Both the position numbers and the translations under genes were made by a program. This document shows positions 4,863 through 10,919 of a stretch of 64,000 nucleotides of DNA, piece by piece. The notes below the pieces were generated by a model. That model was not told where the DNA came from. It did not search any database and saw only the letters and a list, made by a program, of their open reading frames with translations. The DNA comes from Spirochaetaceae bacterium (GTDB lineage: Bacteria > Spirochaetota > Spirochaetia > CADAEX01), in the NCBI GenBank assembly GCA_009780675.1, contig WQZP01000010.1, positions 1-64,000 of the forward strand, in the 5' to 3' direction. Within the stretch, counting starts at the first letter, position 1. Each line of letters opens with the position of its first letter.

Positions 4863-6458
4863 ATGAAAAAACTTGAAAATCAATCTAAAAAAATAGCTTA
4901 TTTTACCCTTTTATTAGCAATCCTTTTTTCATATCTTGCAATTTCAAATGTCAGGAATGTTAATATAAATATAATAGGGTGGGAAGGTTTTCATATTCTG
5001 CTTGTGGAAAATAGTGTAGATGACACAATATATACAAAGCTTCAGGCAAGCGGTTTTTTTGATGAAATCATTTCAAAATATAACACAAAAGTTGCATATA
5101 GTGATTATAACACTTTATCTTATACTACCGTTGATAAAATCGAACAGCGATTTAATCCTTTGGATCCCCGTTTTGATAATTTCATGAGAAATATCCCCAG
5201 GTATTTTCAAGGTTATATATATAATAAGCCAGCGTCTGTTTATTATTTAAGGACAGAAGCTGGTTATAGCCAAACATCTGCTGTTATCAATTCTATTTTA
5301 GGCAACAATTATAACTGGGTAATCCCAAAGTATGAAAACCATCAGTTAAATTATGTATTGCTTTTTTTATATATATTAATTCTTTTGGTATTCATATATA
5401 ATAGTAAAAAACAGTGGTTTTTATATCTATTGTATGCAATTCCATGGGCTTTTCTTGTCCATTTGAATGGAAAAATCTATTTTTTCCCTGCCATAGTTAT
5501 GCTTTTTATATTAATGCTCTTTTTATTTATTGAAAAGGAAGTTGTAAAGGAGTATATCAATAATAAAGCTGTTTCTTTAAAAAAATATCTTCATATAAAA
5601 GCTGTTTTAATAGCTGTTATTACTATTTTTTCTTTTATATTACCTAAAATAATTTTCTGGGGCAGTCCTGATTCTTATATAGCGCCAATATTTATACTAT
5701 TATATGGGCTTTGTTTTATTACATCGCGGCTTTTTTTTACATATCACAGGGTTACAGGGTATTCTCACAAGATATTCTATGCCACTCAAATAAGAAAAGA
5801 AGAAAAACTTACTATTTTATCTTTAAATGTAAAATCTTTTATTTTGATATATTTTTTACTTGCAGCAGCTTTACCTTTTTACCTTTTTAATACAGGAAGT
5901 AAAAACCTAAAATACCCTGTTCCTGTTGCAACACATAAATACCCGGAATCAGGATTAACTCTGGAATTTCTTGGGAAAGTATCAGCAAAAAACGCAAAAA
6001 ACAACTATTTACCTGGTTATTGTGAATATATAAAACATTTGGCATATCAAATAAGACTTCCTTTCAGGATAGATTTCTCAATGCCTTTCAATAATGAAGA
6101 GATAACAATATCGCACTATTATTTTGAAAAAAATAACTATAATAGAGAAAAAATAGTAGTTAACCGGTTTACAGATGTGTGGTTAAATGATAATTTAAGA
6201 ACCAGTATAGGTGGTGGAATTACTCGTCTGATGGTGTCTGGTAGTGGATTGATTCAGGCAGAATCTGGCACAGTGGTGCTGGATGTTCCTCTCTTTATAA
6301 TTCCTTTAATTTTTGTTATTTTATATCCAATATTATTTTATTATCTATTTTTTAAAGAATTATATAATGTAATAAAGGGTCTAAAAAAATCACAAATTTA
6401 TGGAACTAAAAAAAAGATTATACCTTTAATTAAAAGGAGAAAACAGCAAGCGGCATGA
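4863..6458 (+). CDS. Conserved membrane protein upstream of rnfC
   Basis: I do not recognise a named family. The 531-residue protein has an N-terminal membrane anchor (residues about 10-28), an extracytoplasmic domain of roughly 130 residues, then several membrane spans (about 165-330). A second extracytoplasmic domain follows (about 345-465) and a final span near 480-500 with a basic tail (K-K-K-I-I-P-L-I-K-R-R-K). The stop overlaps the rnfC start by 4 bp (ATGA), so it is translationally coupled to the Rnf complex. An accessory or assembly role for Rnf is an inference from position only. Confidence 0.7.
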   Translation: MKKLENQSKKIAYFTLLLAILFSYLAISNVRNVNINIIGWEGFHILLVENSVDDTIYTKLQASGFFDEIISKYNTKVAYSDYNTLSYTTVDKIEQRFNPLDPRFDNFMRNIPRYFQGYIYNKPASVYYLRTEAGYSQTSAVINSILGNNYNWVIPKYENHQLNYVLLFLYILILLVFIYNSKKQWFLYLLYAIPWAFLVHLNGKIYFFPAIVMLFILMLFLFIEKEVVKEYINNKAVSLKKYLHIKAVLIAVITIFSFILPKIIFWGSPDSYIAPIFILLYGLCFITSRLFFTYHRVTGYSHKIFYATQIRKEEKLTILSLNVKSFILIYFLLAAALPFYLFNTGSKNLKYPVPVATHKYPESGLTLEFLGKVSAKNAKNNYLPGYCEYIKHLAYQIRLPFRIDFSMPFNNEEITISHYYFEKNNYNREKIVVNRFTDVWLNDNLRTSIGGGITRLMVSGSGLIQAESGTVVLDVPLFIIPLIFVILYPILFYYLFFKELYNVIKGLKKSQIYGTKKKIIPLIKRRKQQAA

Positions 6459-7786
6459 AATCATTAAAAACTTTTTCAAAAGGTGGTATTCATCCCGGAG
6501 ATTGTAAAGAGCTGACAAATAAGGAAGCAGTAAAAAATGCGGCAATTAAAAGCACTCTTATTGTTCCAATGTCTCAGCATATAGGCGCTCCGTCAGAATG
6601 CCTGGTCAATCCTGGCGACGAGGTAAAGGAAGGTATGCTGATTGGAAAAGCTGCGGGCTTTATATCAGCCAATATTCATTCACCTGCACCAGGTGTTGTA
6701 AAAGAAGTTACAGATATTTTTTTGGCAAGTGGAGCGAAATCCAAAGCAGTTGTTATTGAGCCTTCCGGCGAATTTGACCAGCTTGGGAAAATAGTAACAC
6801 CAATTGACTGGACAGGGATGAGCATAAAAGAGCTTCAGGATAAAATTCTTGAATCTGGAATTGTTGGTCTTGGTGGCGCAGCATTCCCTTCAAATGTAAA
6901 GTTTACAATTCCCTCAGATGCAAAGATAGAATCTCTTGTAATAAATGGAGTTGAGTGCGAACCATACCTTACTGCAGATCACAGGCTTATGCTTGAAAAA
7001 ACCGAAGAAATTTTTAAAGGCCTTGAGATATTGTCAAAAATATTAAGTCCGGAAAAAATCTATATTGGGATAGAAGCAAACAAGCCAGATGCAATTGAAA
7101 AAATGGAAAAACTTGCTCTTGAAAAAGGGACAGGGATCGAGATTGTTCCGCTTAAATTAAAATATCCCCAAGGGGACGAAAAGCAGCTTTTAAAAGCTGT
7201 TATAGATAAAGAAGTTCCATCCGGAAAGCTTCCGCTACATATTGGAGCTGTAGTTACAAACGTAGGTACTGTGTTTGCAATTTACGAAGCTATTGTATTT
7301 GGCAAACCTCTTATTGAAAGAATTGTGACTGTAAGTGGTAAAGGCATTAAAAAACCTTCTAATCTAAAAGTAAGGATCGGTACAAAAGTTGGAGACCTTA
7401 TTGAGGATTGCGGTGGTTTGACAGACGATGCTGTAAGTATTGTAATGGGTGGTCCAATGATGGGTTTTTCAATGGTAAGCCTTGACACCCCTGTAACAAA
7501 AGGGACATCTGGTATTCTTGCATTGACCCAAAAAGAGATTTGCAAAGGAAAAGAAACAGCTTGTCTTATGTGCGGCAGATGCGTAAAAGCTTGTCCTATA
7601 GGGCTTATGCCTACAAGATTATATAAAAAAATTGCATACAGGATGTATGAAGAAGCAATGCGTATGAACTTAATGGATTGCAAAGAGTGCGGCTGTTGTG
7701 GTTATGTGTGTCCTGCAAATGTTCCACTTGTGCAGGGATTCAGGCTTGGGAAAAAAATGGCTAATAAACAGAAGGTGAAATCATGA
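6455..7786 (+). CDS. rnfC: Rnf electron transport complex subunit C
   Basis: RnfC is the peripheral NADH-binding, iron-sulfur subunit of the Rnf complex, which couples ferredoxin:NAD+ electron transfer to Na+ or H+ pumping. The N-terminus has the typical F-S-K-G-G-I-H-P-G opening. A glycine-rich nucleotide/FMN-binding region (G-L-G-G-A-A-F-P-S and N-G-V-E-C-E-P) lies around residues 135-175. Two [4Fe-4S] cysteine motifs stand at the C-terminus, CLMCGRCVKACP from 370 and CKECGCCGYVCP from 409. Length (443 aa) is normal for anaerobe-type RnfC. Start overlaps the upstream stop by 4 bp, and its own stop overlaps rnfD likewise. Confidence 0.96.
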   Translation: MKSLKTFSKGGIHPGDCKELTNKEAVKNAAIKSTLIVPMSQHIGAPSECLVNPGDEVKEGMLIGKAAGFISANIHSPAPGVVKEVTDIFLASGAKSKAVVIEPSGEFDQLGKIVTPIDWTGMSIKELQDKILESGIVGLGGAAFPSNVKFTIPSDAKIESLVINGVECEPYLTADHRLMLEKTEEIFKGLEILSKILSPEKIYIGIEANKPDAIEKMEKLALEKGTGIEIVPLKLKYPQGDEKQLLKAVIDKEVPSGKLPLHIGAVVTNVGTVFAIYEAIVFGKPLIERIVTVSGKGIKKPSNLKVRIGTKVGDLIEDCGGLTDDAVSIVMGGPMMGFSMVSLDTPVTKGTSGILALTQKEICKGKETACLMCGRCVKACPIGLMPTRLYKKIAYRMYEEAMRMNLMDCKECGCCGYVCPANVPLVQGFRLGKKMANKQKVKS

Positions 7787-9432: not shown

Positions 9433-10047
9433 GTGGTAAAAGATTTAACAAAAGCTATTTTTAAAGAAAATTCAATATTTATTATGGGGTTAGGGCTTTG
9501 TCCATTACTCGGTGTTTCAACAAAAGTCATAAATGCATTGGGAATGGGAGCTGGTGTTTTGTTTGTTCTTGTATGTTCAAATATTATTATATCGCTTCTT
9601 AAAGATTTTATTCCAAGTAAGATAAGAATTCCTGCTTATATTGTTACTATTGCATCTTTTGTTGCAATTGTAGAAATGGTTATGCAGGCATATACACCGG
9701 GACTTTTTAGAACTCTTGGGGTATTTGTTCCTCTTATAGTTGTTAACTGTGTAATATTTGCAAGGGTAGAATCTTTTGCGAATAAGAATACTGTAATGCC
9801 TTCTATTATGGATGCAATAGGAACAAGTATAGGTTTTGCGCTTGGTCTTGTTGTTATAGCTTTTATAAGAGAAGTATTTGGAGCAGGAACAATTACTCTT
9901 TTCCCTATTGGTAATTTTAATGGAGTTATTGAGATTCCAGGATTAATAAATGCCCCAATAAGGATATTTGGACTTGCAGCAGGAGCTCTTTTTGTAGTAG
10001 GTATTTTGCAGGCTTTCATAAACTGGTATATCGCAAAAAAGAAATAG
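9433..10047 (+). CDS. rnfE: Rnf electron transport complex subunit E
   Basis: A 204-residue integral membrane subunit with six predicted spans. I assign it to RnfE rather than its paralogue RnfA. It begins with a long polar N-terminus and F-K-E-N-S-I-F-I-M-G-L-G-L-C-P-L-L-G-V-S, and contains I-P-A-Y-I-V-T-I-A-S-F-V, the usual RnfE signatures. The start is GTG at 9433, with GGGAG of the rnfG end as ribosome-binding site. RnfA and RnfE together form the membrane core holding a [2Fe-2S] cluster in studied complexes, so the missing rnfA partner is notable. Confidence 0.94.
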   Translation: MVKDLTKAIFKENSIFIMGLGLCPLLGVSTKVINALGMGAGVLFVLVCSNIIISLLKDFIPSKIRIPAYIVTIASFVAIVEMVMQAYTPGLFRTLGVFVPLIVVNCVIFARVESFANKNTVMPSIMDAIGTSIGFALGLVVIAFIREVFGAGTITLFPIGNFNGVIEIPGLINAPIRIFGLAAGALFVVGILQAFINWYIAKKK

Positions 10048-10057
10048 GAGAAAAAGT

Positions 10058-10105
10058 ATGTCTTATGTTGCAATATTAATTACTTATATCCTTATTATAG
10101 GGTAA
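10058..10105 (+). pseudogene. rnfA: rnfA remnant: 15-codon frame in the rnfA position
   Basis: Between rnfE and rnfB, exactly where rnfA belongs, AGGAG precedes an ATG at 10058. The frame reads M-S-Y-V-A-I-L-I-T-Y-I-L-I-I-G and stops at 10103-10105. RnfA proteins are about 190 residues and begin in a very similar way (M-x-Y, then hydrophobic I/V/L/F positions, followed by V-N-N-F-V-L). So the first 12-13 codons look like a genuine rnfA start fused to a stop. A fresh ribosome-binding site (CAGGAGA) for rnfB follows at once. This could be a real internal deletion or an assembly collapse; the sequence cannot tell which. Confidence 0.7.
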
Positions 10106-10118
10106 CAGGAGAATTTAA

Positions 10119-10919
10119 ATGATAACGATTTTATATGCTTTTATTTCCATAACTCTTCTTGGTGCTTTTTTTGGAATAGGGCTTGCTATTGCAGGAAAAT
10201 ATTTAGCAGTAAAGAAAGATGAAAAACTTTACAAACTGGAAAGAGCTTTGCCTGGCGTTAACTGTGGAGCATGTGGATTCCCAGGATGTTCACAATATGC
10301 AGACGCTATATTTGAAGGGAAAGTAACTGAACTCTCTCTTTGTCCTCCAGGAGGTCCGGAGACATTGGCAAAACTTGGAGAAATAATGGGTGTAGTTGTT
10401 GACTTAACCAAGGAAAAGGAAATTGCGCAGGTGCATTGTTGCGGTGGAAAAGATTCTGCAGTGTATGCATTTAATTATGAAGGAATTCCAGATTGTAATG
10501 CAGCATACAGTATGTATCAGGGTAATAAAGTATGTAAATATGGCTGCCTTGGGTTTGGAAACTGCATAACTGTATGTCCTACAAATGCGATAGTTTCTAC
10601 TGATCAAGAACTTGTGCGTGTTATAGAGAGTAAATGTATCTCATGTGCAAAATGTGTAGTAGAATGCCCGGTTGGAGTAATAAAAATGATACCTGTTTCC
10701 GCAGATTATATTGTTTCATGTAACTCTAATGATAAAGGCGCTGCAACAAAGAAAGCTTGTAAAGTAGGCTGCATTGGATGCAAAATTTGTGATAAAAAAT
10801 CACCTGAAGGTGGATTTAAAATAGATAATTTTCTTGCTACAATTGATTATAGTATAAAAGGCGAGAGAGTTTCTGCGGTAGAAGCCTGCCCCTCAAAGTG
10901 TATTTTGCCGACTAAATAA
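10119..10919 (+). CDS. rnfB: Rnf electron transport complex subunit B (ferredoxin-like)
   Basis: A 266-residue subunit with one N-terminal membrane helix (residues 2-27). A 4Fe-4S domain follows with ligands C49, C52, C57 and C75 (N-C-G-A-C-G-F-P-G-C, then C-P-P-G-G). C-terminal ferredoxin-like motifs include C-I-S-C-A-K-C-V-V-E-C-P, C-K-V-G-C-I-G-C-K-I-C and a final E-A-C-P-S-K-C. RnfB is thought to accept electrons from reduced ferredoxin. The ribosome-binding site AGGAGA sits 8 nt before the ATG. It ends the Rnf operon; I see no terminator hairpin after it. Confidence 0.95.
   Translation: MITILYAFISITLLGAFFGIGLAIAGKYLAVKKDEKLYKLERALPGVNCGACGFPGCSQYADAIFEGKVTELSLCPPGGPETLAKLGEIMGVVVDLTKEKEIAQVHCCGGKDSAVYAFNYEGIPDCNAAYSMYQGNKVCKYGCLGFGNCITVCPTNAIVSTDQELVRVIESKCISCAKCVVECPVGVIKMIPVSADYIVSCNSNDKGAATKKACKVGCIGCKICDKKSPEGGFKIDNFLATIDYSIKGERVSAVEACPSKCILPTK

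What the first reader, a model, noticed from the sequence alone, without database searches (positions are those of the whole stretch)
10058..10105. rnfA collapsed to 15 codons inside an otherwise intact Rnf operon
The rnfC, D, G, E and B frames are full length and tightly coupled, but the rnfA slot holds only M-S-Y-V-A-I-L-I-T-Y-I-L-I-I-G and a stop, with its own ribosome-binding site. The start resembles RnfA N-termini, as if the middle and end had been deleted. RnfA and RnfE form the membrane core in known complexes, so a five-subunit Rnf, a relocated rnfA, or a homo-RnfE core would each be new.
Basis: partly seen in the sequence, partly recalled or inferred. Interest (0 to 1): 0.7.

Follow-up and report, generated by a model that had tools for sequence, protein, structure and literature searches.

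The report
Rnf pump subunit moved under sodium riboswitch
In this spirochaete the gene for one core part of the Rnf ion pump was deleted from the pump's operon, leaving a 15-codon scar, and a full-length copy sits elsewhere in the genome behind an RNA switch predicted to sense sodium, so the cell may build the pump only when internal sodium rises.

Summary
rnfC, D, G, E and B are intact, and the rnfA slot (10058-10105) encodes only MSYVAILITYILIIG-stop. Both ends match the in-place rnfA of sister genomes: 28/30 nt at the start and 16/18 nt across the stop. It is therefore the scar of a 543-nt in-frame internal deletion.

The complex has not lost RnfA. The genome's only other PF02508 gene is a full-length rnfA (196 aa, above the TIGR01943 cut-off, both metal-ligand cysteines present, dN/dS 0.11-0.24) on contig C45. 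It lies between hydA and a DUF2400 gene, which are neighbours in sister G001.

That copy has its own promoter and leader, with a Na+-I riboswitch (RF03071, 45.9 bits, cut-off 40.5) whose second stem overlaps an intrinsic terminator, the published Na+ ON-switch layout. In two sisters the related leader drives a Na+-pumping oxaloacetate decarboxylase. In 78 of the 80 nearest rnfA loci rnfE directly precedes rnfA, and none of the other riboswitch sites examined has an rnf gene nearby.

Best reading: rnfA was copied into a Na+-riboswitch unit, the operon copy was then deleted, and pump assembly may now be gated by intracellular Na+ through one subunit. Relocation is well supported. The switch's function is predicted, not shown, and everything rests on one draft genome.

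The parts
6455..7786 (+). rnfC, full length, 443 aa
   Evidence: TIGR01945 548 bits
7783..8877 (+). rnfD, full length, 364 aa, overlaps rnfC by 4 nt
   Evidence: TIGR01946 295 bits
8874..9428 (+). rnfG, full length, 184 aa, overlaps rnfD by 4 nt
   Evidence: TIGR01947 71.6 bits, E 8.5e-20, below its curated cut-off of 102; FMN_bind domain
9433..10047 (+). rnfE, full length, 204 aa, GTG start, cysteines 23 and 106 that correspond to the inter-subunit metal ligands
   Evidence: TIGR01948 209.8 bits (cut-off 213.4) and NF009070 217.2 bits (cut-off 184); cysteines
10058..10105 (+). rnfA remnant: first ~13 codons fused in frame to the last ~3 codons and stop of rnfA, own Shine-Dalgarno retained
10119..10919 (+). 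rnfB, full length, 266 aa; its Shine-Dalgarno (CAGGAG) directly follows the remnant's stop codon
   Evidence: TIGR01944 101 bits (cut-off 68.7)

Best explanation
The 15-codon ORF is what is left of the operon's rnfA after an in-frame internal deletion of 543 nt. The deletion was tolerable because a functional rnfA copy had been placed elsewhere: on contig C45 (L003 10042-10629, minus strand), between a Na+-I riboswitch leader and the start of a Na+/phosphate cotransporter gene. The six-subunit Rnf complex is therefore probably still made, from five genes in the operon plus a relocated rnfA. The relocated gene has its own promoter, a Na+ aptamer, and a terminator that shares a strand with the aptamer's second stem. 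Low Na+ should let the terminator form and stop transcription; high intracellular Na+ should stabilise the aptamer and let rnfA be made. RnfA supplies two of the four cysteines that hold the metal centre between RnfA and RnfE, so the Na+ signal would gate completion of the whole pump. Shown by sequence: the remnant, the full-length copy, its purifying selection, the riboswitch match and the terminator overlap. Inferred: order of events, Na+ response in vivo, gating of assembly, and that Rnf pumps Na+ here.
For: The own genome holds exactly two PF02508 genes: rnfE in the window and a full rnfA on C45. That protein passes TIGR01943 (249.5 vs 229.3 bits), has Cys25 and Cys113 (ligand positions from PMC9588780), and shows dN/dS 0.24 (NG86) and 0.11 (YN00) against G002 rnfA. 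It groups with same-genus rnfA in a supported clade, at 84% identity to G002, within the range of the operon subunits (61-86%). The remnant matches both ends of sister rnfA. Same-genus genomes keep rnfE and rnfA together where both are on the contig. RF03071 lies 94 nt upstream of the relocated ATG, over its gathering score, with the conserved segments intact. A sigma-70-like promoter (TTGACT-16-CATAAT) and a 16-bp terminator overlapping the aptamer's 3' stem strand are present, the layout published for Na+ ON switches (PMC9337991). Related leaders in sisters G002 and G003 drive oxaloacetate decarboxylase genes. C45 belongs to this lineage: hydA-DUF2400-rubredoxin are neighbours in sister G001, and composition matches the window (tetranucleotide correlation 0.94).
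Against: The genome is a draft of 82 contigs, so C10 and C45 are linked by binning and composition, not by a read or shared contig. Only one genome of this species was available. The riboswitch has not been shown to work, and its match (45.9 bits) is moderate. The duplicated leader in front of the cotransporter has lost the aptamer, which shows these leaders can decay. The promoter and terminator are consensus matches.
Confidence: 0.82

Rival explanations
1. Binning or assembly artefact: C45 is from another organism, and the window's genome lost rnfA or lost it in assembly.
For: Draft genome of 82 contigs; the two loci are on different contigs.
Against: The C45 backbone (hydA-DUF2400-rubredoxin) is syntenic with same-genus G001 and DUF2400 is single copy in this genome. 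Composition matches. Contamination is estimated at 1%. The remnant is not identical to the C45 copy, so collapse of a repeat would not produce it. Even if C45 were foreign, some close relative would carry a solitary riboswitch-linked rnfA, and the window genome would have none.
Confidence: 0.08
2. rnfA relocated, but the riboswitch is a passenger: the leader only provides a promoter and ribosome-binding site and expression does not respond to Na+.
For: The twin leader before the cotransporter has lost the aptamer's P2 strand, so decay in this leader family happens.
Against: The rnfA leader keeps all conserved aptamer segments and a mutually exclusive terminator, and it is related to the sisters' Na+-pump leaders.
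Confidence: 0.25
3. Rnf works here without RnfA, as five subunits or with an RnfE homodimer.
For: The operon has no full rnfA.
Against: A full, selectively constrained rnfA exists in the same genome.
Confidence: 0.02
4. The 15-codon ORF is kept for a function of its own, such as translational coupling from rnfE to rnfB or a small membrane peptide.
For: Shine-Dalgarno, start, frame and stop are retained, and the stop sits against the rnfB Shine-Dalgarno.
Against: An in-frame outcome is expected one time in three by chance, the spacing to rnfB resembles the ancestral layout, and no second genome exists to test conservation.
Confidence: 0.2

Closest known systems
Rnf complex (ferredoxin:NAD+ oxidoreductase), e.g. 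Clostridium tetanomorphum and Acetobacterium woodii
   Same: All six subunit genes are present once, with the RnfA and RnfE cysteines
   Different: rnfA is outside the operon, as its own transcription unit
Na+-I riboswitch (DUF1646 motif, RF03071; PMC9337991)
   Same: Aptamer consensus over the gathering score; terminator overlapping P2 as in the validated kefB example
   Different: Would control a single subunit of a multi-subunit redox pump; Rnf and Nqr are not mentioned in the main text of that paper
Na+ riboswitch with oxaloacetate decarboxylase in sister genomes G002 and G003
   Same: Related leader sequence and promoter in the same genus, controlling a Na+ pump
   Different: The regulated pump is a decarboxylase, which G000 and G001 lack

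Membership tests
RnfA (TIGR01943) | Score over the curated cut-off for the C45 protein | tested here: met
   249.5 vs 229.3 bits
RnfA (TIGR01943) | Two conserved metal-ligand cysteines (25, 113) | tested here: met
   Cys25 and Cys113; reference positions PMC9588780
RnfA (TIGR01943) | Gene adjacent to rnfE in an rnf operon (usual context, not a defining property of the protein) | tested here: not met
   Solitary on C45; 78 of 80 nearest rnfA loci have rnfE directly before rnfA
Rnf complex | All six subunits encoded in the genome | tested here: met
   C, D, G, E, B in the window and A on C45
Rnf complex | Na+-coupled ferredoxin:NAD+ activity | not testable with these tools
   Needs biochemistry
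Na+-I riboswitch (RF03071) | Covariance-model score over the gathering threshold | tested here: met
   45.9 vs 40.5 bits, full model 1-55
Na+-I riboswitch (RF03071) | Expression platform mutually exclusive with P2 | tested here: met
   16-bp terminator beginning in the P2 region AGGGTGGAGAGCT, followed by a U-run
Na+-I riboswitch (RF03071) | Selective Na+ binding and Na+-dependent read-through | not testable with these tools
   Needs in-line probing or transcription assay

The most novel reading that the evidence does not exclude
A whole Na+-pumping respiratory complex is gated by intracellular Na+ through one core subunit: the other five are made from the operon, while RnfA, needed for the transmembrane metal centre, is made only when a Na+ riboswitch permits. 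This arose by capture of rnfA in a riboswitch unit and deletion of the original.
Probability: 0.5. Interest if true: 0.78.

Novelty: new variant of a known kind. Interest (0 to 1): 0.63.

Why it matters
If right, it is a natural case of rewiring a conserved multi-subunit pump by moving one limiting subunit under an ion-sensing RNA. It would link Rnf to the Na+ riboswitch regulon, which I did not find reported in the literature searched, and would give a testable negative-feedback loop in which internal Na+ calls for its own export. It also shows how a solitary gene and a scar in an operon can be complementary halves of one event, so a gene missing from an operon need not mean a reduced complex.

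Tried and rejected
Five-subunit or homo-RnfE core: rejected, since a full rnfA exists in the genome. Collapsed assembly: judged unlikely, because the remnant's sequence differs from the full copy. Foreign origin of the relocated rnfA: the tree and identities place it within the genus. A second riboswitch upstream of the cotransporter: no RF03071 match even at E <= 1, with the P2 strand missing. Other rnf genes behind Na+ riboswitches: none within about 1.5 kb of the 27 sites from 391 genomes of another bacterial class, nor at the sister and G021 sites; no strict aptamer motif in the 80 nearest rnfA loci. Regex and the stricter filters used on large genome sets can miss weak aptamers, and an Rfam scan of those 80 loci was not run. 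One protein alignment call failed on coordinates and was replaced by a script. ATP synthase c subunits were looked at for Na+ coupling but not interpreted.

Full report
Observation. The window carries an rnf operon in the order C-D-G-E-(remnant)-B. The five full-length frames match their families; RnfG and RnfE score below the TIGR cut-offs, but RnfE passes NF009070 and RnfG has a significant TIGR01947 match and an FMN-binding domain. Between rnfE and rnfB lies the 48-nt ORF 10058-10105, MSYVAILITYILIIG-stop, with AGGAGA upstream.

Nature of the remnant. Three same-genus genomes (G001-G003) have full-length rnfA; G001 and G002 show the order E-A-B, and in G003, whose contig is cut just upstream, rnfA is followed by rnfB. 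The sister proteins start MSY[VI][AG]IIITY and end LIG or LLG. The remnant's first 30 nt match G002 at 28/30 (next best place in the window 21/30). Its end, TATAGGGTAACAGG.., matches the sister rnfA 3' end and following bases at 16/18, the unique best place. The remnant is therefore an rnfA that lost 543 nt in frame (591 to 48 nt). Similar short T/A-rich sequences (CTTATA-like) occur at both breakpoints, consistent with a short-homology deletion; this last step is inference.

Where RnfA is now. The whole genome (2.40 Mb, 82 contigs, 99% complete, 1% contamination) has exactly two PF02508 genes: rnfE in the window and one on contig C45. The latter, L003 10042-10629 minus, encodes 196 aa and passes the curated RnfA cut-off. 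It has Cys25 and Cys113, the positions that hold the metal between RnfA and RnfE in the C. tetanomorphum structure (PMC9588780). It is 84% identical to G002 RnfA, groups with the genus in a supported clade, and evolves under constraint (dN 0.097, dS 0.397 by NG86; 0.091 and 0.860 by YN00).

Does C45 belong here? C45 carries rex, hydrogenase genes, DUF2400, rubredoxin, cysE and a membrane pyrophosphatase. In sister G001, hydA (85%), DUF2400 (82%) and rubredoxin lie side by side. In G000 a block with an unnamed ORF, the Na+/Pi cotransporter and rnfA lies between hydA and DUF2400. DUF2400 is single copy in G000. Tetranucleotide usage of C45 correlates 0.94 with the window, against 0.91 and 0.92 for the G001 and G002 rnf contigs and 0.76 for a same-family genome. 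Physical linkage to C10 is not shown.

Its new control region. Upstream of the relocated ATG are a TTGACT-16-CATAAT promoter, a full-length match to the Na+-I riboswitch RF03071 (10771-10723 minus; 45.9 bits, gathering 40.5), and a 16-bp stem with a U-run starting at AGGGTGGAGAGCT, the 3' half of the aptamer's second stem. White et al. describe this overlap as the basis of a Na+-triggered ON switch (PMC9337991). Downstream of rnfA comes a ~125-nt piece of the cotransporter's 5' end carrying a one-base shift, then a second promoter-leader, then the intact 547-aa cotransporter. The second leader has lost one strand of the second aptamer stem and gives no RF03071 match, but keeps its terminator. 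The rnfA 3' end (TAACAG) joins the cotransporter's AGAAGAATATTTGTG, close to the Shine-Dalgarno that also follows rnfA in the operon (CAGGAGAAT), suggesting capture by short homology at ribosome-binding sites; this is inference.

Context among relatives. RF03071 is rare in spirochaetes: 2 of 345 genomes sampled from the phylum gave a match at E <= 0.001, only G000 over the cut-off, plus same-genus G002 over the cut-off and G003 just below it. In both sisters the leader precedes oxaloacetate decarboxylase genes, which G000 and G001 lack. Among 27 further sites from 391 genomes of another bacterial class none has an rnf gene within about 1.5 kb. Among the 80 nearest rnfA loci in public genomes, rnfE is directly before rnfA in 78, and the other two still have rnf genes adjacent.

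Mechanism proposed. Five subunits are made from the operon. RnfA is made from C45 when Na+ rises. Without RnfA the transmembrane metal centre cannot form, so the pump is not completed. If this Rnf exports Na+, this is negative feedback. Shown by sequence: the scar, the relocated gene, the constraint, the aptamer match and the overlapping terminator. Not shown: Na+ response, expression, ion specificity, assembly dependence.

Verdict. The new element is the predicted Na+ riboswitch control of a single subunit. The main weakness is reliance on one draft genome.

Noticed in passing
L003 9701-9917 and 10668-10878: The promoter-riboswitch leader is duplicated around rnfA. The copy in front of the Na+/Pi cotransporter lost the left strand of aptamer stem P2 yet keeps a strong 16-bp terminator, so how that gene is expressed is unclear.
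   Followed up: partly
L121 1-603 (G002) and L122 1501-1808 (G003): Sister genomes carry a Na+ riboswitch in front of oxaloacetate decarboxylase genes, with a longer P1 arm than in G000.
   Followed up: partly
L003 10771-10660 (minus): CCGGUUGG at the aptamer's 5' end can pair with CCAAACCGG after the terminator; both are kept in the two G000 leaders, possibly a closing helix or extra regulatory layer.
   Followed up: no
L169 (G000:C4:12000-24000): Three further Na+/Pi cotransporter paralogues in tandem (about 45-62% identical to the C45 one).
   Followed up: no
L207, L208: The genome appears to encode two V-type ATPases with different membrane rotor subunits.
   Followed up: no
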